NCBI RefSeq assembly: GCF_031583595.1
Contig: NZ_CP134145.1
Location: 1,984,001 to 2,048,000 of the forward strand
Direction: 5' to 3'
Length of the DNA: 64,000 nt
Origin: Thalassotalea psychrophila
GTDB lineage: Bacteria > Pseudomonadota > Gammaproteobacteria > Enterobacterales > Alteromonadaceae
The notes under the pieces were generated by a model. That model saw only the letters and a program-made list of their open reading frames with translations. It did no database searches and had not been told where the DNA came from. Below are positions 7,054-54,293 of the stretch, piece by piece (positions within the stretch are counted from its first letter, which is position 1; each line of letters starts with the position of its first letter). The position numbers and the translations under genes are program-made.

Positions 7054-7647
7054 TTACCTTTTTGACCGCTTTTTAACAAATATTATGAACGGTAATATTA
7101 ACCCGCCAACCGCGCCCCATAAATGTGCATCTATAGCAACAGAGGCATTAATTAACGCTTCTACATCAGCACTGGCGCCAAACACCTGTTCGTAAATGAT
7201 TTTACCCCAAACACCAATTAATAAGAGGTAGCCCGATTTCCACCCTTTTTGAATATCACATATTGCGCCCCACACAAAAATACCATGTAGCACGCCGGAT
7301 AAACCGACATAACGAGCCATATCAGGAACAAGGTAAAATATACCAAGGCTGCAAATAACTGCAGAAAGTAAAAATGACTCGCTATAGCTTTTATTGGTGT
7401 AATGATCGCCATGCAAGGCCCAAAGCATTGTTAAACCAGCCAGATTTAACAACAGATGGTTAAAATTTGTATGCAAAAAATGACCTGTTAGATAGCGCCA
7501 ATATTCGCCATCGATAATCTTATTACGATCATAAATTAAGTACTCTGATATAGCGTCCGGTAGCAGGTAAACAACCACAGCGATAACGAAAATAGACAAA
7601 GGGATGGTAAATGCTTGCGAATTAAAAGGTAAAGACAACTTCAACAT
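7054..7647 (-). CDS. rrtA: Rhombosortase (rhomboid-family GlyGly-CTERM protease)
   Basis: A 197-residue, multi-helix intramembrane serine protease. Family hallmarks are present: GEYWRYLTGHFLHTNFNHLL with the membrane His/Asn cluster, GLSG with the nucleophile Ser117, and VAIDAHLWGA with catalytic His175. Rhombosortases are known to cleave proteins bearing a C-terminal GlyGly-CTERM signal (in Vibrio cholerae, VesB). At least four large exoproteins here (22778, 28256, 32549 and 54294) end in such a tail and are candidate substrates. The start at 7647 has no clear ribosome-binding site, so the start is less certain than the identity. Confidence 0.9.
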   Translation of the reverse strand: MLKLSLPFNSQAFTIPLSIFVIAVVVYLLPDAISEYLIYDRNKIIDGEYWRYLTGHFLHTNFNHLLLNLAGLTMLWALHGDHYTNKSYSESFLLSAVICSLGIFYLVPDMARYVGLSGVLHGIFVWGAICDIQKGWKSGYLLLIGVWGKIIYEQVFGASADVEALINASVAIDAHLWGAVGGLILPFIIFVKKRSKR

Positions 7648-27682: not shown

Positions 27683-27712
27683 AAAATGACAACAATACTG
27701 TTGTCATTTTTT
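27683..27712 (+). terminator. Rho-independent terminator after the regulator
   Basis: AAAATGACAACA-ATAC-TGTTGTCATTTT followed by TT. A perfect 12-bp stem begins 28 bases past the stop. Confidence 0.85.
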
Positions 27713-27714
27713 AC

Positions 27715-27787
27715 ATCAGGGATGATGGAATGCCAACTCAACATGGATGTTTTTTAGAGTTGGCTCAAATCAGGGATGATGGAATGC
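27715..27787. repeat. Direct repeat pair flanking a small inverted repeat
   Basis: ATCAGGGATGATGGAATGC occurs at 27715-27733 and exactly again at 27769-27787. Between them CCAACTC and GAGTTGG pair around an inner AACAT-GG-ATGTT hairpin. The layout resembles a small repeat unit bounded by a duplicated sequence. Confidence 0.7.
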
Positions 27788-28255: not shown

Positions 28256-31200
28256 ATGATTTTTAAATCATCCGCTGTCGCAATACTAGTTTCAACGCTG
28301 TTATCAAATAGTGCTAATGCCACAATTAATGGTGGTCAACTAGATAATGCAAATACCGATGGGGCTAGTTCTTACCTAGCTAACACAGAGCAAGAGGTAG
28401 GTGTTTACACCATTACTCTTGCGCACGCAGGCGCCATAGACAGCAAATACGCTGAGTATGGTTCAGGCCGTAGCACTGTTATCAACGAAATCACTAAAAA
28501 ACAAAGTCAGTTAATTGCGCGCATCCAAGCCGAAGAGCCTACAGCGATTGTTACTAGACAGCTACGTATCGTTGCCAGCATGCTTACCATTCAAATGAGT
28601 AAAGCAACGGCTGAAAAAGCTCGTCAGTTTGCCGACGTAGTTTCGGTAACGAAAGACGATAATGCTATTCTGGTTGACGCTAATACTTTAGCCGCGAAAG
28701 AATCTCCTTACCGATACTTAAAAGTGAATGATGCAGAAGGTGACCCGGTAGTTGCTCTTGTTGGTCAAGGGGTTGATTATACCCATGCTCAATTAGGTGG
28801 CAGTGGTAAACAAGCTGATTATGTTACTGCGTATTATGATCGTGATGCGGTGTCTGATTTATTTCCAAATAGCACCGTTATTGGCGGTTTTGATTTCTCC
28901 TCTTCACGTGGTGGCTTTGACTATAATCCGATTGAATTCTACGCAGACATTGAAATGGAATTTGATGGCGTACAATACGGCTATAAAGCCGGTGTTGGTA
29001 CCATATCAGCGTCAATGATTTTAAATGCAGCACCATCAGCAAAAATTCTCAGTTATAAAATACATGGTGTAAATAACTCAGCATCTGGTCTATTGAGAGA
29101 ATCAAAAGAAAGTTTATACGCCGCACTTGAAATGGTGATGGACCCAAACCTTGATGGTGATATGTCTGATGCTGCCGATATCTTACTACTAGATGTTAAC
29201 CCTATGGGCTGGTTAGGCTATTGGGATGAGAATCATTATGGCGGTAGTTTAGACATCAAAATATTACGTTCTGTTGCCGCTGCGGGTACTTTAGTGGTAA
29301 CGCCTGCAGGGGACAATGGTCAATTTGATACTTACTATAGTGTTGCTCCGCGCGGTATGGTTCCTGAAGGGATTTCTGTCGGTTTTGTTGATAAAGACGT
29401 TGATAATGTTGGTGAATATATAATCAATAAAAACAGCCCGATAGGGCCAAATCGTGGCCAATCAAATATTAAACCGGAAGTTGTTGCACTTTCATCTGAC
29501 GCTTATGGTGCAATTATCAATTCTGGTAACTACAGCGATAAAGTTGAACCTAACAATTTATACGGTGCAGCCAGAGTAGCAGGCGTTGCCGCTAATTTAA
29601 TGAAGCGCTACCCGCACCTTAACGCCCATGAGATAAAAGCGATGATCACCAACACTGGTGAGTATGATGTTGCTAATGCTTGGGGAATTGCCCAGTTAGG
29701 CGGTGGTCGCTTAAACCCTGTGGCTGCTACTGGTACTCCTGTATTGATGTACGACAAAGCAACGCTGCAACCAACCATTAATTTAGGTCAGGTTGCTGTG
29801 CAAGGCGAAGCCGGCTTTACTAAAGAATTAGTGATCAAAAATGTTTCTGACAAAGAAGAAACTTATTACCTGTCAAATGTTATCAATGATGCGAAAAATA
29901 TAGAAGATTCGTATCGTCCTAATAATGCCGCCATCAGTGTGGTTATGCCATCACACGTAACGATACCAGCGAATTCAGAAATCACCGTTGGCGTTACTTT
30001 TAATATTGACGGCAGCAAGTTAAGCCCTATATCTATCCAGAAAAGTGCAGATTACAGCCTTGAAAGCTGGGACCTATATGCATTAGATGGCTACATTCAA
30101 TTTACCCACGAACGTAGTAAAACTAAAAACATTCAAATGCCCTGGTTAGCCATGCCAAATCAAACTAGTCCATTTAGTGTTGATATGGAAACCTATGTTT
30201 TTGATACTTTCTATAAAAAAGAAACCTACGACAGAATTGGTGTAGATGAAAGGCTGCCGCCGTTTAGAAGTGATTGGAAAAATGCCACTTATTTTGACAT
30301 TACCCAATCTTATAATCAGGTTGATATCAAAAATGAATCAAGTGTTGCTCAAGATCTTTACGCTATGCCAACCATTTACTATTCAGCCAGTAAACCCGCA
30401 GATAAAGTAAATTCAGGCGGTAACATTATTAAAGCGGTTTCTGGTGGTGTTTATCCGCAAGAGCAATGTAGCGTTTCAAACAAGCAATTAAGTGTTGCCG
30501 TTACTATGTTTGAACCAATGCAAGTGCCTGTCTCAAAGTATATGGACCGTATTGGCGAGAAGTTACTGGTGTTAAAGCTTTATAACCAACAAGCGTTGCT
30601 TGCTGCCGATAATGTATATCCGCAAGAAGACTCAATTGTGAATAGTCAATTACGTTATAAAACCCCGGTTGAATTATCAAAAGTTAAAAATGAACAGCAA
30701 AGGATCACCGAACTTTCTGTGTCTTTTGATTCTATTGATGAAGGCGAAGATGGCTTACGCGATGGTATCGATGACACTTTAAAGCCAATCACGCTGGAAA
30801 CGTTTTACCTTGACTATAAATATGCTTTTGATTTAGATGCACGACAAAAGCGTATAAAAACCTCGAGCTTACCTACCATAGTATCTCCAAGTGGTGATAC
30901 GGTGATCATGAATATTTGTCTTGAAGAGTTATATCATGGGCCGCACATTAGCTACGATATTGAGCCAATCGAATCAGATTTCACCATTAATGAACAAACC
31001 TTTAATGAAAACATTGGTTTCCAGTTTATAACCGACAGACAAAGCTTACCAACTATCGGCGATAACTTACTTATTCATAACTTTAAATACGGTGGTTTAT
31101 TAGAGCAAGAGCTTGATACCGCCCTTGACGAAGAAATTATTGAAGATATCTGTGAAGAAGAAGACTACAGCGAAGACTTTATTGAAATACACGACTCTAA

Positions 31201-32524
31201 CGGTAACTGTATTAGGGAGTTCACTGAAAATCAACCGATAGTAAGTTTACCTGTTTACTTTAACCTTAGTGGCACTAGCTTCACTAATTTTTGTGAAGTC
31301 AAAACATTAAGTCCTTTACGCTATACCTGCACGATAACGCACCCTCGTTTTGTTGAAGATATCACATTTACTTCACCTGTAGGTGCGCCGTGGCCTGGTG
31401 GTGAAGGCCCTACTACGGCTAACTTAATGTGTAACCTGCCAAAAGAGAGTACCTACGCAACGTGTTACCCGGATAACTTAAAAGGTGAGCATAGCCAAAC
31501 CGATTATATCAAAATGATTGAGTTGGCTGATGTACTAAAAGCGCCAATTAAGCAAACTACCTTTGGCGAAGGCAACTACTCATTATTAACCGGCTCTGTT
31601 ATTAAAATTGCTCATTCTGATGATAGCAAAGACGCTGAAGAGCTAATTTGGCAAGATAAACTTACCGTTGCTCCTGGTGAAAAAGCCACTGTTGCGCAGC
31701 TTGTGCAAGAAGAGTGTGGTGGACAACTTGTTGATTTAGGCTTAGATAACTGTATTGGCAAGTCGTCAGTGTTCAGCCCTGCAAGCGGTTACTTCAGATT
31801 TTTGGATTGGAATTCGCCATTACCAACCATTAAAGACAACCAAAGTTTTACCATTAGTGAAGCTGCTCAAAATGGTGACTTTGTTGGTCAGGTTCAATTT
31901 GCTGGTGACCGATTACAACAAAGTAAAAACTCACGCATGCGCTTAATGAGTAGTGATGTTGGCGCACCATTTCAAATGGACGAATTTGGCGTTATCACTG
32001 TTCGTGACGCGTCAATTTTGAATTATGAAGCAAAAACCCAATACCAAATCAAAATTCAAGCGTACATGTATTACCTGAATGGCGATATAACCACGGTAAA
32101 TATCGGTTTATCCAACGCCAATGATAATGCCCCGCAGCAAGTGTCTGGTTTACCAGTTATTTCAGCCAAAGTAGGCAGTGAAATTGAAAACGTTTCTTTA
32201 GCGCCGCATTTTACCGACCTTGATGGTGGCAAAGTGAACTTTATCTCAGCTGATCTACCCGACGGCATAAGCATTAGCCAGGCAGGTACGTTATCAGGTA
32301 CTCCAAATGTGGCTGGGGAGTTCTTCTCTACATTATTGGTTTCTGACGATATTCACACTTATCAAGCATCACTAGAGCTGAATATTACTGGTGAAAATTC
32401 TCAAGCTGAAGAAGAGGCAAACGAGTCATCGTCTTCAGGCGGTAGTATCTCATTTACTTTCATCTTGTTAATGATTTTGGCTAGCCAACGTCGTTTAGCC
32501 CAAAGATTACAGAAAAGTGCCTAG
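28256..32524 (+). CDS. Subtilisin-like S8 pseudo-protease with GlyGly-CTERM tail
   Basis: A 1422-residue exported protein with the layout of large S8 proteases: signal peptide (1-22), I9-like propeptide (about 45-145), S8 fold (about 160-495), beta domains, a Cys-containing module (about 993-1085), a putative-Ig domain (about 1290-1378), then SSSSGGS, a hydrophobic helix and Arg residues (GlyGly-CTERM). By-eye alignment shows every catalytic position changed. The Asp strand reads VALVGQGVDYTH (Gly170 for Asp), GHGTHVA reads GVGTISA (Val247 for His), GTSMATPHVAG reads NNLYGAARVAG (Leu435 for Ser), and the oxyanion Asn is Asp in AGDNG. It is probably a binding or helper protein rather than a protease. 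Confidence 0.85.
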   Translation: MIFKSSAVAILVSTLLSNSANATINGGQLDNANTDGASSYLANTEQEVGVYTITLAHAGAIDSKYAEYGSGRSTVINEITKKQSQLIARIQAEEPTAIVTRQLRIVASMLTIQMSKATAEKARQFADVVSVTKDDNAILVDANTLAAKESPYRYLKVNDAEGDPVVALVGQGVDYTHAQLGGSGKQADYVTAYYDRDAVSDLFPNSTVIGGFDFSSSRGGFDYNPIEFYADIEMEFDGVQYGYKAGVGTISASMILNAAPSAKILSYKIHGVNNSASGLLRESKESLYAALEMVMDPNLDGDMSDAADILLLDVNPMGWLGYWDENHYGGSLDIKILRSVAAAGTLVVTPAGDNGQFDTYYSVAPRGMVPEGISVGFVDKDVDNVGEYIINKNSPIGPNRGQSNIKPEVVALSSDAYGAIINSGNYSDKVEPNNLYGAARVAGVAANLMKRYPHLNAHEIKAMITNTGEYDVANAWGIAQLGGGRLNPVAATGTPVLMYDKATLQPTINLGQVAVQGEAGFTKELVIKNVSDKEETYYLSNVINDAKNIEDSYRPNNAAISVVMPSHVTIPANSEITVGVTFNIDGSKLSPISIQKSADYSLESWDLYALDGYIQFTHERSKTKNIQMPWLAMPNQTSPFSVDMETYVFDTFYKKETYDRIGVDERLPPFRSDWKNATYFDITQSYNQVDIKNESSVAQDLYAMPTIYYSASKPADKVNSGGNIIKAVSGGVYPQEQCSVSNKQLSVAVTMFEPMQVPVSKYMDRIGEKLLVLKLYNQQALLAADNVYPQEDSIVNSQLRYKTPVELSKVKNEQQRITELSVSFDSIDEGEDGLRDGIDDTLKPITLETFYLDYKYAFDLDARQKRIKTSSLPTIVSPSGDTVIMNICLEELYHGPHISYDIEPIESDFTINEQTFNENIGFQFITDRQSLPTIGDNLLIHNFKYGGLLEQELDTALDEEIIEDICEEEDYSEDFIEIHDSNGNCIREFTENQPIVSLPVYFNLSGTSFTNFCEVKTLSPLRYTCTITHPRFVEDITFTSPVGAPWPGGEGPTTANLMCNLPKESTYATCYPDNLKGEHSQTDYIKMIELADVLKAPIKQTTFGEGNYSLLTGSVIKIAHSDDSKDAEELIWQDKLTVAPGEKATVAQLVQEECGGQLVDLGLDNCIGKSSVFSPASGYFRFLDWNSPLPTIKDNQSFTISEAAQNGDFVGQVQFAGDRLQQSKNSRMRLMSSDVGAPFQMDEFGVITVRDASILNYEAKTQYQIKIQAYMYYLNGDITTVNIGLSNANDNAPQQVSGLPVISAKVGSEIENVSLAPHFTDLDGGKVNFISADLPDGISISQAGTLSGTPNVAGEFFSTLLVSDDIHTYQASLELNITGENSQAEEEANESSSSGGSISFTFILLMILASQRRLAQRLQKSA

Positions 32525-32533
32525 GCACTTTTC
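32512..32533. promoter_or_regulatory. Perfect 22-bp palindrome across the stop codon of the pseudo-protease
   Basis: GAAAAGTGCCT followed directly by its reverse complement AGGCACTTTTC, with the stop codon TAG at its centre. It can form an mRNA hairpin 15 bases before the next gene's GTG start. It could tune termination or expression of the following subtilase. Confidence 0.5.
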
Positions 32534-32548
32534 AAAAAGGACATTAAA

Positions 32549-35500
32549 GTGAAATTACATTTAAACAAATTAATGCTGACCTTGTCTATTGTTGCTACGG
32601 GTGCGAATGCTGCACCTAATAGCTTAATAGACAACGATGGGCAAACCTATATTCCACTGAATCAAACGGTATTTACCGCTGATTTAATAACGCAAAGAAA
32701 ATCTCTCGCTGGTATCGACAACTACATGGTCTTATTAGAAGACGATGCTCTGGCTATGTATAAAGGTGGTCTAAGCGGATTATCAGCAACGAATATATTA
32801 GCCAGTAAAGGGGCTAACGTTAATGCACGTGGCAAGCTTAATACTAAGAGCCTGGCGTCAAAGCAATACAAAAGCTTTTTATCTGCTAAACAGGCTGAAA
32901 TGCAATTACATATTAGTTTGCGCTTAAAGCGCGAGCTGAATGTTGAATTTGAATTTACCTCAGTATTGAACGGTTTTACTACAGAGCTAAATGCAACTGA
33001 GGCATTACTGGTAAAAGGCATGCCAGGTATACGCTCAATCGAAAAGCTTGAAATGCAAGCTATGGATACCGATTCAGGCCCTGCATTTACTGGTGCTAAT
33101 AATGTCTGGCAGCAGTCCAACGTTTATGTAGACGCTAATGGCGACAGTATTAGCATGGGCGAGGGCGCAGTTGTCGCGGTTATAGATTCGGGTATTTCGT
33201 CTTATAAAGAAATGGTAATAGATATTAAGGATACTGAAAACCTACCGCCATTTAACCCGTCTTTTGCCGGCGAAGTTGAAGAATTCGAATTTGACGCCGA
33301 AGGTAACTTTGTTGTTGATGAGCAAGGCAATAACGTAAGTACTACATACACATTTACCAACCCAATCCCAAACCCTGATAGTGCATCAGGTTACTACGGA
33401 GATTGTGCTAGCGAGCCAAACTGGTGTAGTGAAAAATTGATCGGGGTTATGGGCATAGGTGTTTATGGTGCGGACTCTGTATCTCAAGATCACATTGTTG
33501 AAGAAAATGGTGACATTACTTTCATTTACTCAAGATGGGCAACTGGTCAGGATTTCACCGGCCATGGTACTCACGTAGGCTCAACCGCAGCAGGTAACTT
33601 TGTTTATAACGTACACGCCGAAGTTGAAACTGGGCAACGCGATCACGTTACCTTAATGGACAATTTTGAAGAAGAAGTGGAACAGCGAAGAATTGAAGGC
33701 AGAGCAAATCACGAAAATAAAAACAGCTACAATGACTTTAAAGAATCTTTTGTTTACGACCGTATCGGTGGTGTTGCACCACATGCCAATATAATCTCGT
33801 ATCAGGTGTGTGGCGGAACAAGTGGTGGATGTCAGCCTGGTTATGCCGCAGTGGCGCTTGAGCATGCCTTTAATATAGGTGTTGACGCGGTTAACTATTC
33901 GGTCAGTGGCCCGGCAACTTCACCTTGGTATAGCTGGCAGGCATTAGCGTTTTTAGGAGCGCGCCAAAATGGTATGCATATATCTGCTTCTGCTGGTAAT
34001 ACCGGTGCATATGGCTGGGGAACGGTACGTACGCCGGCAAATGCTCCTTGGCTTACCAGCGTTGGCTCTGCGTCATCTGATCGCGGCTTTGATAAAAAAG
34101 TTGCCACATTATCTGGTGGTAAGTCTTCGGTTGTTAACCATGTTGCTAAAGATGATTTAGATAAGCCAGAATGGCAGCAATACATCGATTTATCAGGTGT
34201 ATTAGTTGGTGAGGCAGGTACATTAGGACTTGCTGAAACTGAGCTTGTACTGGCTAGCAATGCAGAAGTGACTAATGCTGAAGATGATTGGGGCTTAGCT
34301 GGCAGCTGTGGACCTAGAACGCTAAAACCAGAATTAGTTGCGGGTAAAGTTGTTGTTTGTAAACGTGGTGGCGGTAATGGTGAAGGTCCTATTGCTCGTT
34401 TAACCAAAGGTGTTGAAGCGTATTTTGCCGGTGCTGCCGGGATGATTTTAATTAATACCAAAACCGGTAGTGAAAGCGTTATCGCCGATCAACATGTATT
34501 GCCGGCGCTACACTTAAACTATAAAAATGGTAAACAGCTGTTAGAGTGGTTAGCCGAAGGCGAAGAGCATAAAGTTGCCCTTAGTGACTCTAAGGCACAA
34601 GCAAATCCAACCAGAGCAAACTTTCCAAGTGTATTCTCTTCACGTGGTCCCGATATTTTCTCTAAAGATTACTTGATCCCATCTATTACCGGTCCAGGTC
34701 AAAGCATCATAGCCTCTGGTTTAGGGCAAAATATGATGCGTTATAAACCTGATTCAGTAACCTCGGGATCTAACTGGGAATATAAGAGTGGCACATCAAT
34801 GTCTACGCCACATATGACCGGTATATACGCCATTATTGCCGGTGTGCAAAATGCTAAACCGCTTGAAGAAGAACGCTGGACGCCAGCTGAGGCGCAGTCG
34901 GCAGTTATGTTAACTGCGGCAACAACCGTACGTGTTTGGAATGGTGAATTTGACCAGGACAACAATGAAGTATTCGATCCCGCATCATTTCATATGCAAG
35001 GCTCGGGTTTAATGCGTGTGGATTATGCGCTTAAATCTGGATTTGTTATGCCAATCACTCGCGACGAATATTTAGCTGCAGATCCATACGGTGATGCAAG
35101 CTATCAGGAATTGCCAGACGATCAAGGCTTGCCAGATGAAAGTATCAAAGATGATGAGATGGACCTTCCTTACCCGGTAGATGAGTACGGCGATAAAATA
35201 CTTGCTCCACAGGGGTGGCACGGGAAAACTCATCGATTAAACCTGGCAAGCTTATCAAAAGGTGATTGTTTAGCCGCTTGTGGTTGGGTTCGTACCTTTA
35301 AAGCAGTAAAAGATGCTACCTACAATATATCTTATTCTTACGGCACTAAGGGCATGGTATTAAACACTTACGTTGTTGATGAAAGTGTTGAAGGTCTTGT
35401 CCTTACGCCAAGAGAAGAAGATGAAATCACCTCGGTAGAGCTTGCTGGTACTGAAATTATTACTTTGTCAGTAACGGCTGGGCAAACGTATAAATTATAC

Positions 35501-37132
35501 TTTACCGCTACAGTTAATGATGAACTTGATGCAATTTGGTCAAATGGTCGTATACATTTTAAATCAGCAGATAGTTCCATTGCTGATATGAGCCTTGCCG
35601 CAGCGGTTGAATTTGTTGCAGGTACTGCGCCAGAAGAAGTGAACATTATTGCCCATCGCGATACCGGCACGGTACAAGTAAACGATATCGTCACTATTGG
35701 CAGTAGCGATTTAACCATCACTGAAAGCAGTATTACTGAAGCGTTTACCGACAAAGTATATATCTCAAGAGATAAATTCCCAACAGAAGTTTACCGCGAT
35801 TTAGAAGATGGCACTTACGCCTATCCATTTTATGTACCATCAACTGCAGCGCGTTTAGTGATTGAAGTACTGGATACCTCATCACCAGATATTGACATGT
35901 ATGCCATGGTTGACAGCGATGCCGACAGTGTGGTCGATCAGCGCGAACTTAGAGCTGTTACCTTTTGGGATGGCTATCGTGGCGCCGACGCCAAGATAGA
36001 CGTGCAAAACCCAACACCAGGTATTTATATGTTACTTATTCATAACTACGGTGACGTTTTTAATGCGGTTGAAATTGGTGAAGGTGAAGCCAACCCATTA
36101 CATGACCCGGCAACATTAGAAGAGCCAGACTTTGTTGAGTTCTCTATTTCTGTGGTGCGCAATGCTGACGAAGACGATGAGTCGTTAAAGGTACGTGGTC
36201 CAAGAAATGTAGCCGCTGATGATGAAGTTACTCTGGATTTAACCTGGAACAAAGCCATGAGAAAAGGCGAGCGTTACTACGGGCAATTCCACTTAGGCAC
36301 TGATGATCACTTAAGTCAAAATATCGGTACGGTTAATGTCAACATTCAGCGTGGTCTGGATGATGTACAGCTAAATCTGTTATCAAACAATGAAGCAACG
36401 TCAGAAGCCGCTTTTGAAATCATGTTTACTGCTAATAGCACCGAAAAAGACATCACTTACAACATGACAGTTGATTTAGCAGCAGGTACTGAACTGGTGC
36501 AATTTACCCATGAAAATGTACAAAAGGGTATTGCGCTTAAATCAGCCGGTGAAGAAGTTGACTATAGCATCAACGGCAGTGAAATCACCTTTGAACATGT
36601 GATGGCTGCGGGTGGTAACGCCGAAGCCGTAGCGTTAGTAATTAATTATGACCATGTTGAAGGCCAAACTGATATTGCGCCGGTAGTCACCTCAATTATT
36701 AATGAACAACAGCATCCAAGCTATTCATACGTTGATGAAGCTATAGATGTTGTTGGTCGTCCGGTGTTTACAACGTCTGTATCTGATCGTAGCCCTGCAA
36801 AAGGCGATACGGTTGTTATCAGCGCTAGTCTAGTTGATGCGGTTATCGAAAACCCTTCAATTTCATACGCATGGACGCAAGTATCTGGCCCTAATGTTGA
36901 GGTTACACAATCTGCTAATGAAATTAGCTTTGTGATTCCAGGTGCAAAAAATGAAGGGATCATCATCTTCGAGCTTACCGGACACAATGGCGATAAACAG
37001 TCGATGCCAGTTGAAGCAAGCGTAAATGTTGAGGCAACCGATTTTGGTGGCAGTACTAATGAAGCATTCATGTTACTGGCATTAACGGCTCTGTTTACTC
37101 GTAGAACAATGCTACGTCAATCGAAAGCTTAG
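32549..37132 (+). CDS. Large secreted S8 subtilase with intact triad and GlyGly-CTERM tail
   Basis: A 1527-residue exoprotease. It has a signal peptide (1-21), an I9 propeptide (about 57-165), and a catalytic domain with Asp213 (VAVIDSGI), His339 (GHGTHVGSTAAG) and Ser750 (GTSMSTPHMTG), interrupted by a PA domain at about 605-670 (AGAAGMILINTKTG). Long beta-rich C-terminal domains follow, then FGGSTNEAF, a hydrophobic helix and Arg-Arg. It resembles the lactocepin/vibriolysin-type PA-containing subtilases of marine bacteria. It starts with GTG, AAGGACATTAAA upstream, 24 bases after the pseudo-protease, so the pair is co-transcribed. Its likely role is degradation of external protein. Confidence 0.93.
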   Translation: MKLHLNKLMLTLSIVATGANAAPNSLIDNDGQTYIPLNQTVFTADLITQRKSLAGIDNYMVLLEDDALAMYKGGLSGLSATNILASKGANVNARGKLNTKSLASKQYKSFLSAKQAEMQLHISLRLKRELNVEFEFTSVLNGFTTELNATEALLVKGMPGIRSIEKLEMQAMDTDSGPAFTGANNVWQQSNVYVDANGDSISMGEGAVVAVIDSGISSYKEMVIDIKDTENLPPFNPSFAGEVEEFEFDAEGNFVVDEQGNNVSTTYTFTNPIPNPDSASGYYGDCASEPNWCSEKLIGVMGIGVYGADSVSQDHIVEENGDITFIYSRWATGQDFTGHGTHVGSTAAGNFVYNVHAEVETGQRDHVTLMDNFEEEVEQRRIEGRANHENKNSYNDFKESFVYDRIGGVAPHANIISYQVCGGTSGGCQPGYAAVALEHAFNIGVDAVNYSVSGPATSPWYSWQALAFLGARQNGMHISASAGNTGAYGWGTVRTPANAPWLTSVGSASSDRGFDKKVATLSGGKSSVVNHVAKDDLDKPEWQQYIDLSGVLVGEAGTLGLAETELVLASNAEVTNAEDDWGLAGSCGPRTLKPELVAGKVVVCKRGGGNGEGPIARLTKGVEAYFAGAAGMILINTKTGSESVIADQHVLPALHLNYKNGKQLLEWLAEGEEHKVALSDSKAQANPTRANFPSVFSSRGPDIFSKDYLIPSITGPGQSIIASGLGQNMMRYKPDSVTSGSNWEYKSGTSMSTPHMTGIYAIIAGVQNAKPLEEERWTPAEAQSAVMLTAATTVRVWNGEFDQDNNEVFDPASFHMQGSGLMRVDYALKSGFVMPITRDEYLAADPYGDASYQELPDDQGLPDESIKDDEMDLPYPVDEYGDKILAPQGWHGKTHRLNLASLSKGDCLAACGWVRTFKAVKDATYNISYSYGTKGMVLNTYVVDESVEGLVLTPREEDEITSVELAGTEIITLSVTAGQTYKLYFTATVNDELDAIWSNGRIHFKSADSSIADMSLAAAVEFVAGTAPEEVNIIAHRDTGTVQVNDIVTIGSSDLTITESSITEAFTDKVYISRDKFPTEVYRDLEDGTYAYPFYVPSTAARLVIEVLDTSSPDIDMYAMVDSDADSVVDQRELRAVTFWDGYRGADAKIDVQNPTPGIYMLLIHNYGDVFNAVEIGEGEANPLHDPATLEEPDFVEFSISVVRNADEDDESLKVRGPRNVAADDEVTLDLTWNKAMRKGERYYGQFHLGTDDHLSQNIGTVNVNIQRGLDDVQLNLLSNNEATSEAAFEIMFTANSTEKDITYNMTVDLAAGTELVQFTHENVQKGIALKSAGEEVDYSINGSEITFEHVMAAGGNAEAVALVINYDHVEGQTDIAPVVTSIINEQQHPSYSYVDEAIDVVGRPVFTTSVSDRSPAKGDTVVISASLVDAVIENPSISYAWTQVSGPNVEVTQSANEISFVIPGAKNEGIIIFELTGHNGDKQSMPVEASVNVEATDFGGSTNEAFMLLALTALFTRRTMLRQSKA

Positions 37133-37163
37133 AAAAACAAAATACTAATAAATAAAGGATGCT

Positions 37164-37185
37164 GTCGTCAGGTAACCCTGGCGGC
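37164..37185 (+). promoter_or_regulatory. Hairpin between subtilase and TonB-receptor genes
   Basis: GTCGTCAGG-TAAC-CCTGGCGGC pairs with two G-U pairs in RNA, 31 bases past the subtilase stop. No T-run follows, so it suits an intercistronic processing or stability element better than a terminator. Confidence 0.4.
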
Positions 37186-37231
37186 AAGCGTTGAAACAAA
37201 GATAAAAATATTATTCAGGTTGGAAACTATC

Positions 37232-40200
37232 GTGAAAAAATTAAGTATATTAACTACCAGTATTCGTAGCGCTCTTATTGTCGGTATGATCGGCAGTGTC
37301 AATGCCTACGCCGTACAGGAAGAAGACGTTGCAGTAACAACGGTTGCGCAAGTTGAAATTGAAGAAGTTGTTGAAGAAGAGAGTGACGTTGAACGCATTG
37401 AAGTTACTGGATCTCGTATTAAACAAATCGACTTTGAAGGACCAAGCCCAGTAACGGTAATTAGCGCTGCAGAATTGCAAGCCAAAGGTTTTGCTACGGC
37501 GTTTGATGCATTAAAAGATTTAACCTCAAATACCGGTACCACCCAAGGTGCTGAATCGGCTGCTACTGGTGGTTTTACACCAAACGCACAAACGGTAAGT
37601 TTACGTGGTTTAGGCAATAATCAGGTGCTAATTCTAGTGAATGGTCGCCGTATGGCTGATTACCCAAGCCCTTATAATGGCCAGGGTAACTTTGTTAACT
37701 TGTCGGCAATTCCTGCGGTAGCCATTGAACGCATTGAAGTGTTAACCGCTGGTGCATCGGCTATATATGGTTCAGATGCGGTTGCTGGTGTTATGAACAT
37801 TATCACTAAAAAAGATGTTGAAGATACGACCGTAGCTATTAAAGGTGGTGTTACCACTGAAGGCGGCGGTGAAGAAGGGCGTTTTCAAATTGTTTCTGGC
37901 ATAAGTGATAACAATTACAGCTTAACCGGCGCACTTGAATTTCAAACCCAAAAGAAAATTTTAGCTTCCGATCGTAAATGGATGGACAGTGTCGAAGATG
38001 GTCCTGCAGGTCATACCTATTTAGACCGTGGTATCGTAGTTGTTGACGAATTAGCTCGCTATGAAGGTTTTTACCGCAATGATGAAGAGTATTTTGATGA
38101 TGAAGATGAGTTTCTTCGTCCAGCTCGTTACATTTCACCAGCAAATAGTGCTTGTCAAAACTCTGGCACCGGCTATATCCCAACCGATCGAATAGATAAC
38201 GAAGGTGAAGATGATGAATACAACTGGGGCGATTACTGTGGTACAGACAACACAGGTACGCGCACCATTCGTAATAACCGTGACACAGTGTCGGCTTATT
38301 TAAGTGGTATTTATGACTTAACCGACGATGTTTCAGTATTCGCCGATGTACTTTACTCATACCAGGAAGCAGAGTATCGAAGCGGTTTTCATTACTTCAA
38401 TGAAGAAATGATGATTGATGTTAGTGAAGACGGTACTGGCGAAAATGACAGCAATTTATTGCCTCTAGAAAATGACGGCTTTGCCGGCACCGGTGTTGAA
38501 GACTGGAAGTGGGTGACTCATCAACGTTTCTTTTCTGAAGATGAAATTGGCTTTAAAGACGGTAATGTTGAAGATACCTCGTTAATGGTGAATGTTGGCC
38601 TTAAAGGTGTTGTTCTTGATGAGTATGACTGGGAACTAACTTTCAGCCGCAGTGATAACCAAAGTGACAGTTATTCAACCCAGTTAAAAGAAGAGCAAGT
38701 TAAAAAGTATTTCTTAGGTACACAGCATGACATCAGTTTTGGTGATGCCGTATTTCGTGGTTACGATGGCGTAAATACTATCGGTTTGTATGATCCTTTA
38801 TCAGAGCAAGCGAAAGCAGATTTAGCCGGTACTCAATGGCAAGCGTCTGAGTCATATTCAAACGCGGTAAGCGCTGTTATTTCAGGCGTAGCCTGGGAGA
38901 TGGATCATGGTGATGCGATGTTTGCTGCAGTGCTTGAATGGAATGAGCAAGGCTATGACATGATGTTGGACGACCGTACATTAGCCAAAGAAGATGAAAA
39001 TGGCTACCGTGAAGGTTGGTATAACTTAACCGGCAGTATTGGTGGCGGTGATCGTTCTCGCTACGCCGTTGGTCTTGAATTACAAATTCCGGTTACCGAG
39101 CAAATTTTAGCGTCTTTAGCGGGCCGTTATGATGAATATGAAGATGGCACTACTGATATTGGTGGTCGTTTTACCCCGCAAGTAGGGCTTAGCTATACAC
39201 CGATAGATAGCCTGTTATTACGTGGTACGTGGGGAACAAGTTTTAAAGCGCCAGATATGCACCGTGTGTTTGCTGAAGAAGGTGGTTACTACACCAACGC
39301 TGCCGATATTGTTGGTTGTGAGGTTGCTTACTATGAAGGTCTTAAAGACGAAGACGGTGAATTCCCTGATGACCTTGATCCGGTAGATGATAAGTTTGAC
39401 TTGGACAATTCACAATGTGGCGCGCAATCTATTAAAGGTAGTACCGCTGGCTCTAAAACCTTAAAAGAAGAAGAAGGTACTTCTTATGGTTTAGGGTTGG
39501 TTTGGGAAGCAACTGAAGATCTAAACATTACTGTTGACTGGTATAAAATTGAAATTGAACAACTTGTTATCAGCGAAAGCTTACAAGGCGTACTAGTCAA
39601 TGAGTTTTACTGTCAGGACCGTAGCGATGAAGATTTATACCCTGATTTTGCCGACCAAAACGATCGTCCAGATATCGAACCTGGCTCTGCATTTTGTCAA
39701 AACAACAGTGATAAAATCATTGATGATGTAGACGATTGGGCTAATGTTGGACCATTTGGTCGTGAAATTAGCTCTGTATTTACTTCACATGAAAATGCCG
39801 CCAAGCAAATGGTTGAAGGCATCGATGCTAAGGTTAACTATAAACTAGAAACCAGCTCTGGTGATTTCTTCCTAAACCTTGGCTGGACTCACACTCTAGA
39901 CTCTAGCTATCAGGCGACTGAAGATGGCGAAGAAGTTCACACTCGTGACCTTTGGTGGAACTCAGCAGCACGCTCGGTAATGAATGGTTCATTAACTTGG
40001 ATGCAAAATGACTATTCATTAACACTAAGTGGTCGTCGTGTTGGCTCTACGCCAATTATGAATCCGCCGAAGGAGTTTGGTGATGAAAACAGTTACTTTT
40101 ATGAAAGAGTACAACGAGTTGATCCTTACTACACCTTTAACTTAACTGGCGGTTGGGCTGTTTATAACAACTTATTTGTTTCTGCCCAAGTGGTTAACCT

Positions 40201-40321
40201 ATTTAATCCACGTCCACCAAAAGATCAAACAGCATACAGCTGGCCATATTTCAATGGTGGTGCCTATGGTGGTGCAGCAGTAGGACGTACTGTATCTGCT
40301 GAATTGAGTTATAAATTCTAA
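37232..40321 (+). CDS. TonB-dependent outer-membrane receptor
   Basis: A 1029-residue receptor. A signal sequence (about residues 1-28) is followed by an acidic linker and a TonB-box-like segment (RIEVTGSRIK). The plug domain shows SPVTVISAAELQAKG, VSLRGLGNNQVLILVNGRR and GASAIYGSDAVAGVMNIITKK. A 22-strand-type barrel ends in ELSYKF with the C-terminal Phe. The start is the GTG at 37232, behind TTGGAAAC, rather than the upstream TTG. The barrel contains many acidic Asp/Glu loops. It follows the subtilase by 99 bases, so import of peptides or a cofactor released by that protease is plausible. The substrate is not known. Confidence 0.95.
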   Translation: MKKLSILTTSIRSALIVGMIGSVNAYAVQEEDVAVTTVAQVEIEEVVEEESDVERIEVTGSRIKQIDFEGPSPVTVISAAELQAKGFATAFDALKDLTSNTGTTQGAESAATGGFTPNAQTVSLRGLGNNQVLILVNGRRMADYPSPYNGQGNFVNLSAIPAVAIERIEVLTAGASAIYGSDAVAGVMNIITKKDVEDTTVAIKGGVTTEGGGEEGRFQIVSGISDNNYSLTGALEFQTQKKILASDRKWMDSVEDGPAGHTYLDRGIVVVDELARYEGFYRNDEEYFDDEDEFLRPARYISPANSACQNSGTGYIPTDRIDNEGEDDEYNWGDYCGTDNTGTRTIRNNRDTVSAYLSGIYDLTDDVSVFADVLYSYQEAEYRSGFHYFNEEMMIDVSEDGTGENDSNLLPLENDGFAGTGVEDWKWVTHQRFFSEDEIGFKDGNVEDTSLMVNVGLKGVVLDEYDWELTFSRSDNQSDSYSTQLKEEQVKKYFLGTQHDISFGDAVFRGYDGVNTIGLYDPLSEQAKADLAGTQWQASESYSNAVSAVISGVAWEMDHGDAMFAAVLEWNEQGYDMMLDDRTLAKEDENGYREGWYNLTGSIGGGDRSRYAVGLELQIPVTEQILASLAGRYDEYEDGTTDIGGRFTPQVGLSYTPIDSLLLRGTWGTSFKAPDMHRVFAEEGGYYTNAADIVGCEVAYYEGLKDEDGEFPDDLDPVDDKFDLDNSQCGAQSIKGSTAGSKTLKEEEGTSYGLGLVWEATEDLNITVDWYKIEIEQLVISESLQGVLVNEFYCQDRSDEDLYPDFADQNDRPDIEPGSAFCQNNSDKIIDDVDDWANVGPFGREISSVFTSHENAAKQMVEGIDAKVNYKLETSSGDFFLNLGWTHTLDSSYQATEDGEEVHTRDLWWNSAARSVMNGSLTWMQNDYSLTLSGRRVGSTPIMNPPKEFGDENSYFYERVQRVDPYYTFNLTGGWAVYNNLFVSAQVVNLFNPRPPKDQTAYSWPYFNGGAYGGAAVGRTVSAELSYKF

Positions 40322-40340
40322 TCATAGAGTAAGCCAAATA

Positions 40341-40365
40341 GAGCAGGCAAAATGTTTGCCTGCTC
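40341..40365 (+). promoter_or_regulatory. Perfect hairpin between TonB receptor and LRR lipoprotein genes
   Basis: GAGCAGGCAAA-ATG-TTTGCCTGCTC, an 11-bp perfect stem starting 19 bases past the receptor stop. The following bases (AAATAAG) lack a T-run, so it may limit read-through or protect the upstream mRNA. Confidence 0.5.
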
Positions 40366-40404
40366 AAATAAGTTACTGTGAATAAATTAATAGTGAGAAG
40401 CCTA

Positions 40405-43400
40405 ATGGCCAATTATAAAAACATGTTTAAGAGTTCAAGCTTAAGCTTGCTAGTTGCATCGGTATTACTGACCGGTTGTGGCGGCGATGACGCGGCAGAG
40501 TTAAGCGTTGAAAAGTTTGACCCAACCGTTTCAATAGAAACAAAAGCGTTGTCTATTTTTGAACGCGAAGAAGTGGTATTAAATGCCGATGCATTTGATA
40601 AAAATGGCACAATTGTAAGTTATGAATGGACAATTACCAATCCTAACCAAGCACCGATCACCTTAGCAGGTGCTGATACTAAACAAGTGAGTTTTACTAC
40701 ACCTGAAGTTACTTATGGTGATGAAAATCTTGAATATAAAATTAAAGTAACTGTTACCGATGATGAAGGTAATACCGTACAAGACAGTGTTAACGTTACA
40801 AATAAGCCGATCGTTGAAGAAGTTAAACTTTACGGCCAAGTAAAATATATTATTCAACCTATCATTACCGCCTATGTAGGTGATCAGGTAATCACCATTG
40901 AAGATAGTAAAAGTTATTCCGATGGTATTTATGATTTTGATCTAATTGTTGATGAAAACAACGTTGATGAGATGATCAAATTAGTGGTTAATGGCCGTGA
41001 ATCGATTACTTCAAGTACCGGTATAGTGGTACATGTTGGTCAGCAAAATGTTGAGTATGTATCGTTATTGCCAAACATCAAAACCTTGCAAAGTCGTCAT
41101 GGCGCGAACGAAGCCCTAGAAAGTTTCGAAGAATTTGGTCTTAATATCAATGCTATGACTACGGCACAATTTGTGTTGGCAACTGAGCTAGCTAAATCGC
41201 AACTAAGCGCTGAAGTTGAGCCAAGCTTAGCCGATATTTTCGCATTACTACCAATATTCAATGGTGAAGTAGCAGTAGTTGATGGCGGTCGTCATTATGA
41301 TGCATTAACGCTTGCGGCGATAATTCATAGCTTGATCTCCCTAGAAGGTGAAGAAACGTTAGCCACTATTCCTGAGGAAATGAAAACTACGCTTGAGTAT
41401 GTATCGCAATCAATGTCAACATCTTCAGTAGCAGCATTAAAAGCTAAGATTGTTAACGCCATTGGTTTAGAACGTTTTACTGAAATCGGTATACAAATTG
41501 GTGAAGATGGCAACTACGTTAAAGTGCGTGATACCGATTTTGATGGCAAACTTGATAATGTAGACGACGATATCGACGGTGATGGTGTTTATAATTTACC
41601 TGACTCTTTACCCAAAGATTTTGCCCCATATGACAGCGAACGTTCAAGCCCTGTATTTGCTGACCTATTCTGGGGAAAAGATGGTCATGATGGTCACTTA
41701 CTACATTGTATTTTCAAAAGTCAAAGTGAGAAGGTTACCTGGAATTTTAGTGATTCTGAGTCGAGCCTAAGTAGAGATTATTTCGAGAGTAAATTGCTTA
41801 ATGAAATTGAGGTTATTGACTGCACGGGTGAACCTGCTACAACAGACCTTGAACATCTACAGTATTTCACCAGTCTTAAATTTCTTGCTTTACCTGACAC
41901 CGATATATCTGTTATCCCTGATATTACAGTTTGGTCACAAATGACCGAATTAGAATATCTCGATTTATCAAATGCTAAAATTACTGACTTTTCAGTTATT
42001 GCTAATTTCACTAAGTTAACAACGTTGAAATTAGCCAGAAATGCTTTAATTGACTTAGGCTTTTTGCAAAATTTAGCCAATGTTGAAGTGTTAGATTTAT
42101 CGGGTAATTTACTTTCTAACATTGAAAAACTGGCAAGCTTTAACCAGTTAACTGAGCTTACGTTATCAAATAATGATATTACTACTGTCGCAGGTGTCGA
42201 ATCATTTACCGGCTTAACTCAGTTAAAATTAGACAATAATAACTTATCAGATTTGCCAAGCTTGGCAGGTTTAAATGAGTTAAGTGTTTTTAAAGTTGAT
42301 AACAATCAAATTGGCGTACTACCTGAGTTTTCAACAAGTGCGGTATTGACGGAATTAGCAATTCATAATAATGAAATTGTTGATTTAACTCCAATCGCCG
42401 GATTCAATACACTAACGACACTGAATTTAGATCACAATAAAATTGTCTCGCTTGACTCGTTGACCAGCTTTACTGAATTAACGCAATTAACAGCAAATAA
42501 CAATGCAATAAATGACATTAGTGAGTTAGTTAACTTAACTCTGTTAAGTACTCTTTCTCTAAATAATAACCAAATAACTGATCTTAGTTCCTTAGCAGGA
42601 CTAGAAGATCTGACTACATTAAATTTAACCAATAACAACATTGCTGATATTAGCTCATTAGCTAATGTAAGCATTAAAGATAAGTTGCTATTAGATACTA
42701 ATTTATTAATTGATATTACTGCCATTTTAGCTTGGGCAGAACTGCCTGAATATATGGATTTACGTGCCAATAGCATTAGTTGTGAAGACGATGCTAGTCT
42801 AAAAGAGTTAGCAGATGTTGATACTTACGTGAAAGATGCTGAGGGTAATATTATTAAAATTATCACGCACACTTACTTTGGTGACTGTATCGAGAAATTG
42901 ATTCCTACACATAAGCCGTTTTCAAATACTTCTCTATTAGATGTTTTTGATGCAGGAGCAGTGCAAGAAGGTGGTGATTATGAGTATTTAAATGGTGGAA
43001 TGAAAGAGTCATTCAATGAGCACGTTAGTTGTTTGTACTATGAATTAACTATGTATGCGCCAATCTGTGTGAATAGTCCAATGAACCAAGGTGGAGGTTT
43101 ACTCTGTTATGCGGTTAACAATGACGAGTTAGATGCTTATCGCTTAGATCCTGATACTCATGTTAAAGATAAAGATGCTACACAAATGTTTTGTGTAAAC
43201 CCATTTATTGAAGAGTTTTCTATTGCCTTTGACATACATAGAGAGTCGGCTGCCGCGTATCAACCTGGCCAGCCATTTGTAGATGACTTCAGTAAACGCC
43301 ATATTATGAACTTGCTTAACAGCCATCATAGGGAAGTTAATATTAATGCAGAAGGTTATTCAGACCTTAATTCGTGTGCATTACAAGAAAGCGGTGACTA

Positions 43401-43653
43401 TGTGTGTACCATGACCAGTAAGCGCTTTTCTCAGCCGGTGACCTGGTTACAAGATAATGAACATGGCGGCTTTCCTGAATGTTCTGGTTTAGCTGAAACC
43501 ACTATTGCTACCTGTCGTCCAAGGTTTTTGGCACCTGAGAATGTTGATAAATATGACTTCACTTTAGATATCAGTGAAGCGGCAAGAACCTACATTCCAC
43601 GTGTAGAATTTGTACCTGAATGTGGTACGCAACAATCATCGTGTGAACAATAA
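40405..43653 (+). CDS. Leucine-rich-repeat surface lipoprotein 1
   Basis: A 1082-residue lipoprotein with lipobox LLTGC and Cys24-25 lipidated. It has a PKD-like domain (about residues 40-130), a beta-rich middle and an Asp-rich calcium-type motif (DVDDDIDGDGVYNLPDSLP, near 390). Internalin-like leucine-rich repeats of about 21-22 residues span about 477-790 (LTELTLSNNDITTVAGVESF). The conserved C-terminal region (about 830-1075) is Cys-rich. That C-terminal region is also in the paralogue at 43919, and part of it in the pseudo-protease. The ATG at 40405 has GAGAAG upstream; a GTG at 40378 is in frame but lacks a ribosome-binding site. It probably binds protein ligands at the cell surface. 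Confidence 0.88.
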   Translation: MANYKNMFKSSSLSLLVASVLLTGCGGDDAAELSVEKFDPTVSIETKALSIFEREEVVLNADAFDKNGTIVSYEWTITNPNQAPITLAGADTKQVSFTTPEVTYGDENLEYKIKVTVTDDEGNTVQDSVNVTNKPIVEEVKLYGQVKYIIQPIITAYVGDQVITIEDSKSYSDGIYDFDLIVDENNVDEMIKLVVNGRESITSSTGIVVHVGQQNVEYVSLLPNIKTLQSRHGANEALESFEEFGLNINAMTTAQFVLATELAKSQLSAEVEPSLADIFALLPIFNGEVAVVDGGRHYDALTLAAIIHSLISLEGEETLATIPEEMKTTLEYVSQSMSTSSVAALKAKIVNAIGLERFTEIGIQIGEDGNYVKVRDTDFDGKLDNVDDDIDGDGVYNLPDSLPKDFAPYDSERSSPVFADLFWGKDGHDGHLLHCIFKSQSEKVTWNFSDSESSLSRDYFESKLLNEIEVIDCTGEPATTDLEHLQYFTSLKFLALPDTDISVIPDITVWSQMTELEYLDLSNAKITDFSVIANFTKLTTLKLARNALIDLGFLQNLANVEVLDLSGNLLSNIEKLASFNQLTELTLSNNDITTVAGVESFTGLTQLKLDNNNLSDLPSLAGLNELSVFKVDNNQIGVLPEFSTSAVLTELAIHNNEIVDLTPIAGFNTLTTLNLDHNKIVSLDSLTSFTELTQLTANNNAINDISELVNLTLLSTLSLNNNQITDLSSLAGLEDLTTLNLTNNNIADISSLANVSIKDKLLLDTNLLIDITAILAWAELPEYMDLRANSISCEDDASLKELADVDTYVKDAEGNIIKIITHTYFGDCIEKLIPTHKPFSNTSLLDVFDAGAVQEGGDYEYLNGGMKESFNEHVSCLYYELTMYAPICVNSPMNQGGGLLCYAVNNDELDAYRLDPDTHVKDKDATQMFCVNPFIEEFSIAFDIHRESAAAYQPGQPFVDDFSKRHIMNLLNSHHREVNINAEGYSDLNSCALQESGDYVCTMTSKRFSQPVTWLQDNEHGGFPECSGLAETTIATCRPRFLAPENVDKYDFTLDISEAARTYIPRVEFVPECGTQQSSCEQ

Positions 43654-43677: not shown

Positions 43678-43710
43678 AAGGCTTGCACTGGAAACAGTGC
43701 AAGCCTTTTT
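43678..43710 (+). terminator. Rho-independent terminator after LRR lipoprotein 1
   Basis: AAGGCTTGCACTG-GAAA-CAGTGCAAGCCTT plus three more T. A perfect 13-bp stem with a GNRA tetraloop starts 25 bases past the stop. It marks the end of the 28256-43653 unit. Confidence 0.93.
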
Positions 43711-43918
43711 GGTTCAGCGATTAAAAGTTTTATGTAAATCTTTTGTGTATTTATTGTATCGATTTCTTTGAAAATTTAATGTTCAGTTTATTGTAAATGT
43801 TTTTCTGGTTAGCTATTTATAGTGTTTAACATTGGAAAAATAGTGTTGCATCTATGAATGTCGAGACACTATTTTATTAAATTCAATGGTTTATGTAGAT
43901 GGATTTAACGGGAAAACT

Positions 43919-53795: not shown

Positions 53796-54293
53796 ATCTT
53801 CCTCTTCATGTAAATCATAGAATTTCTTGCAAGCAACTAATTCATAAGTAAGTTTTAACCCGAACAGGTTGCTATCGCTTTATTTAACAACCTTTAATAC
53901 GATGGATGTCTATTTTAAGCAATCATGGACGAGTCGATTTGACTTAAAAAAAAACACAATTTTCATACATAAACCTTACATTTGTCGTAAGTTATTGATT
54001 GTAAGAGTGTTAATTTTGGTATTTGTTTTGTTGAATTTCTATGATTATTGTGGATGCTGAAATTATAAGTTTTAGTGTTGAGAATAAGAGCTTTTAGAAT
54101 GACCGCGATAAATGTTTGTATAATTGTTTGTTCTTTAATAGCAGCTTGTTATTGGTTGCCTTTCTAACTGCTTGTATTTTAAGTAATATATTTTAATGTG
54201 TGTTTATTTTATAATAAATATGAAGTGCTGTTGTTGTATTGCTTTTATAAATGTTTTATTAAATTGCCATCGAAATATTGGATGGAGAATCCT
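53796..54293. other. Gene-free divergent region between the DUF1566 unit and subtilase 3
   Basis: About 500 AT-rich bases between divergent genes, so it should carry both promoters. A TATAAT hexamer at 54119-54124 lacks a convincing -35 box. Short hydrophobic frames here (from 53869 and 54198) have no ribosome-binding site. Confidence 0.4.

What the first reader, a model, noticed from the sequence alone, without database searches (positions are those of the whole stretch)
28256..43653. Candidate surface protein-capture unit: pseudo-subtilase, subtilase, TonB receptor, LRR lipoprotein
Four genes for exported proteins lie in the same direction with short gaps (24, about 100 and 83 bases). There are intercistronic hairpins, a long leader before them and a strong terminator only after the fourth. 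One protein probably cleaves (intact triad), one has the protease fold without the catalytic residues, one is an outer-membrane importer, and one is a ligand-binding-type lipoprotein. The grouping recalls SusCD-like scavenging units, but with a pseudo-protease and an LRR protein in place of a SusD. I know of no described system with this composition. Function is inferred from domain content only.
Basis: partly seen in the sequence, partly recalled or inferred. Interest (0 to 1): 0.78.

Follow-up and report, generated by a model that had tools for sequence, protein, structure and literature searches.

The report
Paired dead and live surface proteases
A marine bacterium carries six copies of a gene set that couples a protein-cutting enzyme to a catalytically dead look-alike, an outer-membrane importer and usually a binding lipoprotein; the dead-live enzyme pair recurs across related bacteria, so the dead copy is probably a working partner and not a relic.

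Summary
The four genes are real and correctly read. Pseudo-subtilase (PSS), active-type S8 subtilase, TonB receptor and LRR lipoprotein form one of six paralogous, co-oriented cassettes in this chromosome; five have a CadC/ToxR-type regulator with a beta-propeller. The deeper finding is the pair. In 44 of 44 full PSS loci examined, a subtilase gene is adjacent or in the same frame. Asp and the Ser motif are missing in all 44 PSS, His in 40; partner triads are intact wherever the sequence is complete. In two Solimonas species both lie in one 2,440-codon frame with internal sorting-signal-like and signal-peptide-like stretches, a polyprotein-like arrangement. PSS is not a duplicate of its partner, is under purifying selection as strong as its partner's, and its ex-His and ex-Ser positions are among its most variable. 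PSS and S8 trees mirror each other. A receptor follows the pair in 12 of 44 loci, one Thalassotalea/Thalassomonas clade. Best reading: a surface protease whose non-catalytic subtilase partner helps assembly, targeting or regulation, recruited into peptide-scavenging loci. Closest precedent: the clostridial Csp subtilases. Surface location here, the partner's exact role and the substrate are unproven.

The parts
22778..25102 (+). Reprolysin-type (M12B-like) metalloprotease; also present in cassettes A and D
   Evidence: Pfam Reprolysin_4 E 1.3e-30; paralogs 48-53% identical
25559..27655 (+). One-component regulator: OmpR/CadC-type winged helix and PD40/TolB-like propeller
   Evidence: Pfam Trans_reg_C, PD40; homologue near 37 of 44 PSS loci
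27685..27712 (+). Terminator-like stem plus T-run after the regulator gene
   Evidence: read by eye; not listed by the scan
28256..32524 (+). Pseudo-subtilase (PSS): signal-peptide-like start, prodomain-like region, triad-less S8 fold, fn3_5, beta-rich rest, GlyGly-CTERM-like tail
32512..32533 (+). Hairpin over the end of the PSS gene, no U-tract on +
   Evidence: (listed as a minus-strand match)
32549..37132 (+). Active-type S8 subtilase with PA insert and PKD-like stretch, GlyGly-CTERM-like tail by eye only
   Evidence: tail not matched by TIGR03501
37158..37193 (+). Intercistronic hairpin before the receptor gene
37232..40321 (+). TonB-dependent receptor (open from TTG 37220; GTG 37232 preferred)
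40341..40365 (+). Intercistronic hairpin, 11 bp, before the LRR gene
40405..43653 (+). LRR lipoprotein with PKD-like N-terminal domain (open from GTG 40378)
43678..43707 (+). Terminator-like 13-bp stem with T-run, end of the unit
43886..46450 (+). Second LRR lipoprotein with TSP3 repeats, 54% identical to the first in the aligned columns, beyond the terminator
7054..7647 (-). Rhombosortase, the enzyme expected to process GlyGly-CTERM tails
   Evidence: TIGR03902 176.5 bits, cut-off 84; ORF

Best explanation
The unit is a surface protein-scavenging locus built around a two-part subtilase. [quoted passage not shown] The PSS is a non-catalytic partner acting in trans: it binds substrate, or regulates or helps mature the S8 protease. 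The TonB receptor imports the released peptides or a cargo freed by proteolysis, with the LRR lipoprotein as capture protein. The CadC/ToxR-type propeller protein senses a signal and switches the locus on. Shown: gene content, order, paralogy, loss and conservation patterns, and (by model) the fold. Inferred: physical complex, sorting and surface location in this species, substrate, regulation.
Against: No expression, interaction or growth data. A receptor follows the pair in only 12 of 44 loci. G007, same genus, has metalloprotease-receptor-LRR without PSS/S8 and no PSS match in its 70-contig genome. In cassettes C and E the LRR gene has its own terminator-like stem. TIGR03501 passes its cut-off in 0 of 7 C-termini tested from this genome: window PSS 14.3 and cassette A PSS 15.2 against 15.5; window S8, window metalloprotease and the PSS of B, C and D unmatched, so sorting here rests on resemblance. 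Nearest receptor structures are siderophore and cobalamin receptors, which does not point to peptides. S8 proteases of this kind also exist without a PSS (own 1503041). Mirror trees show co-inheritance, not contact.
Confidence: 0.58

Rival explanations
1. Iron or haem piracy locus. The protease frees iron, haem or a cofactor from captured proteins; the receptor imports the small ligand, not peptides; the LRR lipoprotein binds the foreign protein as TbpB does.
For: Closest receptor folds are PfeA, Cir, FepA, BtuB and, further down, TbpA; best NCBIfam receptor hit is TonB-hemin at 96 bits, far below its 317-bit cut-off.
Against: All receptor subfamily cut-offs are missed; no gene that I recognised as iron uptake in the cassettes; receptor relatives sit beside S9 peptidases in 4 of 13 stretches annotated.
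Confidence: 0.2
2. The PSS works alone as a surface adhesin or as a decoy that soaks up protease inhibitors; its pairing with S8 reflects co-regulation only.
For: Long beta-rich C-terminal part; prodomain-like region and subtilisin fold kept; in four Shewanella loci the two genes are divergent, not in one operon.
Against: Adjacency in 44 of 44 loci, mirrored trees and the single-frame arrangement in Solimonas are more than co-regulation needs.
Confidence: 0.2
3. PSS is a decaying protease pseudogene.
For: All three catalytic residues are lost in the window copy; a PSS fragment in G009 (411943-412932) does look decayed.
Against: Open frames in the 44 full-length copies, omega 0.074 overall and 0.051 in the fold, copies in several families, 56 of 341 fold columns with entropy under 0.4 bit.
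Confidence: 0.01

Closest known systems
Clostridial Csp subtilases (CspB, CspA, CspC) of Clostridioides difficile
   Same: Subtilase family; pseudoproteases lacking triad residues encoded beside an active subtilase; cspBA is a fusion that is cut into two proteins; the pseudoproteases act in signalling upstream of the active CspB (PMC12880746: outline, introduction; PMC6636752: start of abstract in the listing)
   Different: Gram-positive spore cortex, smaller proteins (recalled), germinant sensing, no receptor, no surface sorting. [quoted passage not shown]
SusCD / RagAB-type nutrient uptake loci of Bacteroidota (recalled)
   Same: Surface degradation coupled to a TonB receptor and a surface lipoprotein, several paralogous loci per genome (recalled)
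   Different: No SusD match; SusC signature TIGR04057 20.6 bits against 46.2 cut-off; pseudo-protease/protease pair and LRR lipoprotein instead; CadC-type regulator.
VesB and other rhombosortase/GlyGly-CTERM substrates of Vibrio cholerae
   Same: T2SS-exported serine protease held at the surface by a processed GlyGly tail (PMC6219818, passages read)
   Different: No pseudo-partner, receptor or propeller regulator that I know of (recalled).
Vpr, C5a peptidase, SpyCEP and cucumisin subtilases
   Same: Fold of PSS; Vpr is the top structural match
   Different: Natively active enzymes (recalled; several of the solved entries are inactivated variants).

Membership tests
Peptidase_S8 family (subtilases), for PSS | Subtilisin fold / Pfam PF00082 | tested here: met
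   32.9 bits against 21.8 cut-off; model matches subtilisins at 2.0 A over about 243 residues
Peptidase_S8 family (subtilases), for PSS | Asp-His-Ser triad, as an active peptidase | tested here: not met
   Asp and GTS motif absent in 44 of 44, His in 40 of 44
Peptidase_S8 family, for the partner | Asp-His-Ser triad | tested here: met
   Asp 38 of 38, His 39 of 39, Ser 39 of 39; motifs present in 5 more; one partner is cut at its N-terminus
Csp subtilases | Sequence kinship to CspA/B/C | tested here: inconclusive
   No Csp model or chain among the hits shown, but no direct comparison was made
Csp subtilases | Clostridial spore function | tested here: not met
   PSS-bearing named genera are Gammaproteobacteria (names; placement recalled)
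SusCD system | SusC/RagA signature on the receptor | tested here: not met
   TIGR04057 20.6 bits against 46.2
SusCD system | SusD homologue | tested here: not met
   No SusD family among Pfam/NCBIfam hits of the seven window proteins scanned
Rhombosortase / GlyGly-CTERM system | Rhombosortase in the genome | tested here: met
   TIGR03902 176.5 bits, cut-off 84
Rhombosortase / GlyGly-CTERM system | C-terminal TIGR03501 domain | tested here: inconclusive
   0 of 7 C-termini of this genome over cut-off, best 15.2 against 15.5; 10 of 10 chosen from named relatives over it
ToxR/CadC-type one-component regulators | N-terminal Trans_reg_C winged helix with a C-terminal sensor | tested here: met
   PF00486 31.6 bits against 26.2, PD40 66.3 bits; the membrane helix was seen only by eye

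The most novel reading that the evidence does not exclude
The PSS is a surface receptor subunit: a dead subtilase that recognises a substrate or signal and switches on, matures or targets its bound active subtilase. It would be a Gram-negative counterpart of the clostridial Csp logic, made as a co-cleaved polyprotein in Solimonas and recruited in Thalassotalea, with a TonB receptor and LRR lipoprotein, into multiplied 'protein utilisation loci', each copy tuned to a different protein.
Probability: 0.35. Interest if true: 0.85.

Novelty: new variant of a known kind. Interest (0 to 1): 0.7.

Why it matters
The pseudo-subtilases that the paper searches brought up are those of clostridial spores. 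Here a dead-live subtilase pair has stayed together across several gammaproteobacterial families, with many natural variants, named isolates and a clear knock-out test. If the receptor linkage means what it seems to, it also gives marine Gammaproteobacteria a protein-degrading analogue of polysaccharide utilisation loci, which bears on how they take up dissolved protein.

Tried and rejected
Pseudogene reading of PSS: rejected. PSS as tandem duplicate of its partner: rejected; 37 of 39 PSS score higher against the set of ten other S8 proteins than against any partner-family S8, and nine PSS chosen for a tree form one clade (support 1.00) beside active S8 proteins of other genera. Leader RNA or riboswitch: no Rfam hit, leader not conserved. 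Final-protein fusion in Solimonas as proof of a physical complex: weakened, because the frame keeps an internal GlyGly-CTERM-like stretch and a signal-peptide-like stretch, so it may be cut into two. Receptor structure as a clue to cargo: uninformative beyond 'TonB receptor'. No Csp chain was among the rows shown, which does not exclude kinship. Literature: eight answered searches on this system or its parts and two on neighbouring topics listed no paper that I recognised as describing such a pair or unit; I judged by titles and starts of abstracts, and subscription papers are mostly not held.

Rows dropped before the 44-locus count: a 329-aa PSS fragment in G009 (411943-412932, regulator nearby, no S8 seen), PSS fragments on a short contig of G003, and L153 at a contig end. 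Of 78 loci the neighbourhoods of the first 27 were printed; the other 51, weaker, were not looked at. Weak hits (generic S8 proteins) were left out; triads were checked in five of them, not in G085 or G274. Searches scored only two candidates per genome, so 11 of 295 and 1 of 369 are lower bounds. In the aligned ex-Ser column 3 of 39 PSS have a Ser, but none has the GTS motif. The PSS of G110 was not called by my ORF script and was read directly. Of 16 receptor matches outside the own genome, stretches for 15 were fetched; 13 stretches were annotated and one of these (L291) printed nothing; only the four S9-like neighbours were scanned with Pfam.

Full report
WHAT IS IN THE WINDOW. Four co-oriented genes lie at 28256-43653 as described: a subtilase-fold protein without its triad, an S8 subtilase with PA insert, a TonB receptor and an LRR lipoprotein. 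Just upstream are a reprolysin-type metalloprotease and a one-component regulator with a CadC/OmpR-type winged helix and a PD40/TolB-like propeller; just downstream, behind a strong terminator-like hairpin, is a second LRR lipoprotein. Hairpins without U-tracts sit between the genes.

SIX COPIES IN ONE GENOME. The chromosome (4.81 Mb, window = 1984001-2048000) holds six cassettes PSS-S8-receptor, all on the + strand, between 1.76 and 2.03 Mb. An LRR lipoprotein follows the receptor in A, B, D and F and precedes the PSS in C and E, there behind its own terminator-like stem. A regulator is present in five (A, C-F), a metalloprotease in three (A, D, F). Between cassettes identity is 35-45% for PSS, 41-55% S8, 55-71% receptor, 27-41% LRR. 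The copies are old paralogs.

A SHARED HISTORY. Against G004 (T. nanhaiensis; name) synonymous divergence of PSS, S8, receptor and LRR is 0.67-0.92. Seven of nine other gene pairs nearby lie at 0.45-1.16; one is 2.0 and one is saturated at 30% identity, probably no ortholog. The metalloprotease and regulator of F are near saturation (2.6), as if exchanged separately. Against G010 (T. fonticola) cassette E is 0.29-0.60 throughout; B and D are 1.7 to saturated, except the D regulator at 0.34. So the four genes agree within each of the four cassettes compared; A and C had no reciprocal match there. These are Nei-Gojobori values; high ones mean only 'saturated'.

THE CORE IS A DEAD-LIVE PAIR. I searched by PSS, not by S8. 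Own genome, relatives, GTDB contigs and an order-wide sample gave 44 distinct full loci: 23 in seven genomes of the first look, 16 further named loci and 5 from the order search. All 44 have a subtilase neighbour with the triad motifs: 38 downstream on the same strand, 4 divergent (Shewanella OPT22 and three genomes that bear the same genus label as S. subflava), 2 in one frame (Solimonas). One partner (G009) is cut at its N-terminus, so its Asp is not seen. Regulator homologues lie in 37 of 44 neighbourhoods; two of the seven misses are contig-limited. A receptor follows in 12 of 44 (two cut by contig ends); of the other 32, two have a distant receptor-like gene on the opposite strand nearby (G004, L133). 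The 12 form one clade in both the PSS and the S8 tree, so receptor linkage probably arose once.

CATALYSIS IS GONE, THE FOLD IS KEPT. The Asp position is Gly, Ser or Ala, and the GTS motif is absent, in 44 of 44; His is replaced in 40 of 44 and kept in the four with the divergent layout. Over 39 aligned PSS, ex-His and ex-Ser columns are at the 93rd and 99th percentile of variability of the fold, while 56 of 341 columns have entropy under 0.4 bit; partner triads do not vary. omega is 0.074 for both PSS and S8, 0.051 for the PSS fold and 0.160 for its prodomain-like region; LRR 0.145, receptor 0.052. The AlphaFold model (mean pLDDT 71, fold region mostly 75-95 with a few weaker loops) is a full subtilisin fold. 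This is the pattern of a non-catalytic protein under selection.

WHY A PARTNER. PSS is not a duplicate of the S8 beside it: it lies near other S8 lineages. It was therefore brought together with S8 and has stayed. Trees mirror each other (r = 0.97; 27 of 36 splits), which shows co-inheritance, not contact by itself. In Solimonas flava and S. variicoloris the two are one uninterrupted frame of 2,439 and 2,440 codons. The junction keeps a GlyGly-CTERM-like stretch and then a signal-peptide-like stretch (by eye), so the product may be cut in two; as one frame, the two would be made one to one, unless the second is also started internally. C. difficile CspBA is a documented fusion of an active and a dead subtilase that is later cut (PMC12880746 introduction).

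SURFACE SORTING. PSS and S8 end in Gly/Ser, hydrophobic stretch, basic tail: a loose pattern of mine, without a control, fits 37 of 39 PSS (the two misses are Solimonas halves cut by me beyond the signal) and 36 of 39 S8. TIGR03501 passes its cut-off in 10 of 10 C-termini that I chose from named relatives but in 0 of 7 tested from this genome, window PSS and S8 included. Rhombosortase and two GspD secretins over cut-off are present. In V. cholerae such tails put a serine protease on the surface through rhombosortase and T2SS (PMC6219818, passages).

DISTRIBUTION. Full PSS in 7 of 59 genomes of the first look, 6 of 15 of the own genus (neighbourhoods in 13, 19, 20); 11 of 295 in the order sample; only the own genome of 369 in the class sample at E 1e-60. 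The last two are lower bounds. Named hosts: Thalassotalea, Thalassomonas, Colwellia, Shewanella, Ferrimonas, Neiella, Solimonas.

THE RECEPTOR. It models well (pLDDT 81) and resembles siderophore and cobalamin receptors. Of 13 stretches annotated around receptor relatives in other genera, four hold an S9 prolyl oligopeptidase next to it, two on the same strand and two divergent; in the others I recognised no peptidase by eye, but those neighbours were not scanned. This leans to peptides but does not settle cargo. G007 has metalloprotease-receptor-LRR without PSS/S8, so receptor and LRR form a module that can stand with another protease.

VERDICT. Observation confirmed. On checking, confidence in the whole model was lowered from 0.60 to 0.58 because none of the seven tails tested from this genome passes the sorting-domain cut-off. 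Function of the dead partner and substrate remain open and testable.

Noticed in passing
window 27716-27733 and 27770-27787; also L026, L031, L056, L059, L062, L070, L100, L105, L250: Dispersed repeat TCAGGGATGATGGAATGC in front of several PSS genes and elsewhere in these genomes; 0 expected in 100 shuffles of the window.
   Followed up: partly
window 54198-60125 (G000 2038198-2044125) and G000 1470122-1475932: Very large S8-type proteins (1975 and 1936 aa) with Asp and His but GAS/GSS in place of the usual GTS around the serine.
   Followed up: partly
G000 1442401-1451824 and 1487061-1496730: Two further receptor + very large S8 (2103 and 2156 aa) gene pairs, a second and distant family of protease-receptor loci in the same chromosome.
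   Followed up: partly
G000 1783749-1787243 and 1880532-1884134: Large lipoproteins after cassettes A and D; the one scanned (A) has no Pfam match at 0.001.
   Followed up: no
G009:C1:1157787-1160666: S8 partner with a missing N-terminal part in the frame read, possibly a broken gene; left as it is.
   Followed up: no
L133, L240, L241, L242: Clade in which the PSS keeps the HGT histidine but not Asp or Ser, and the S8 gene is divergent: perhaps an intermediate state.
   Followed up: partly
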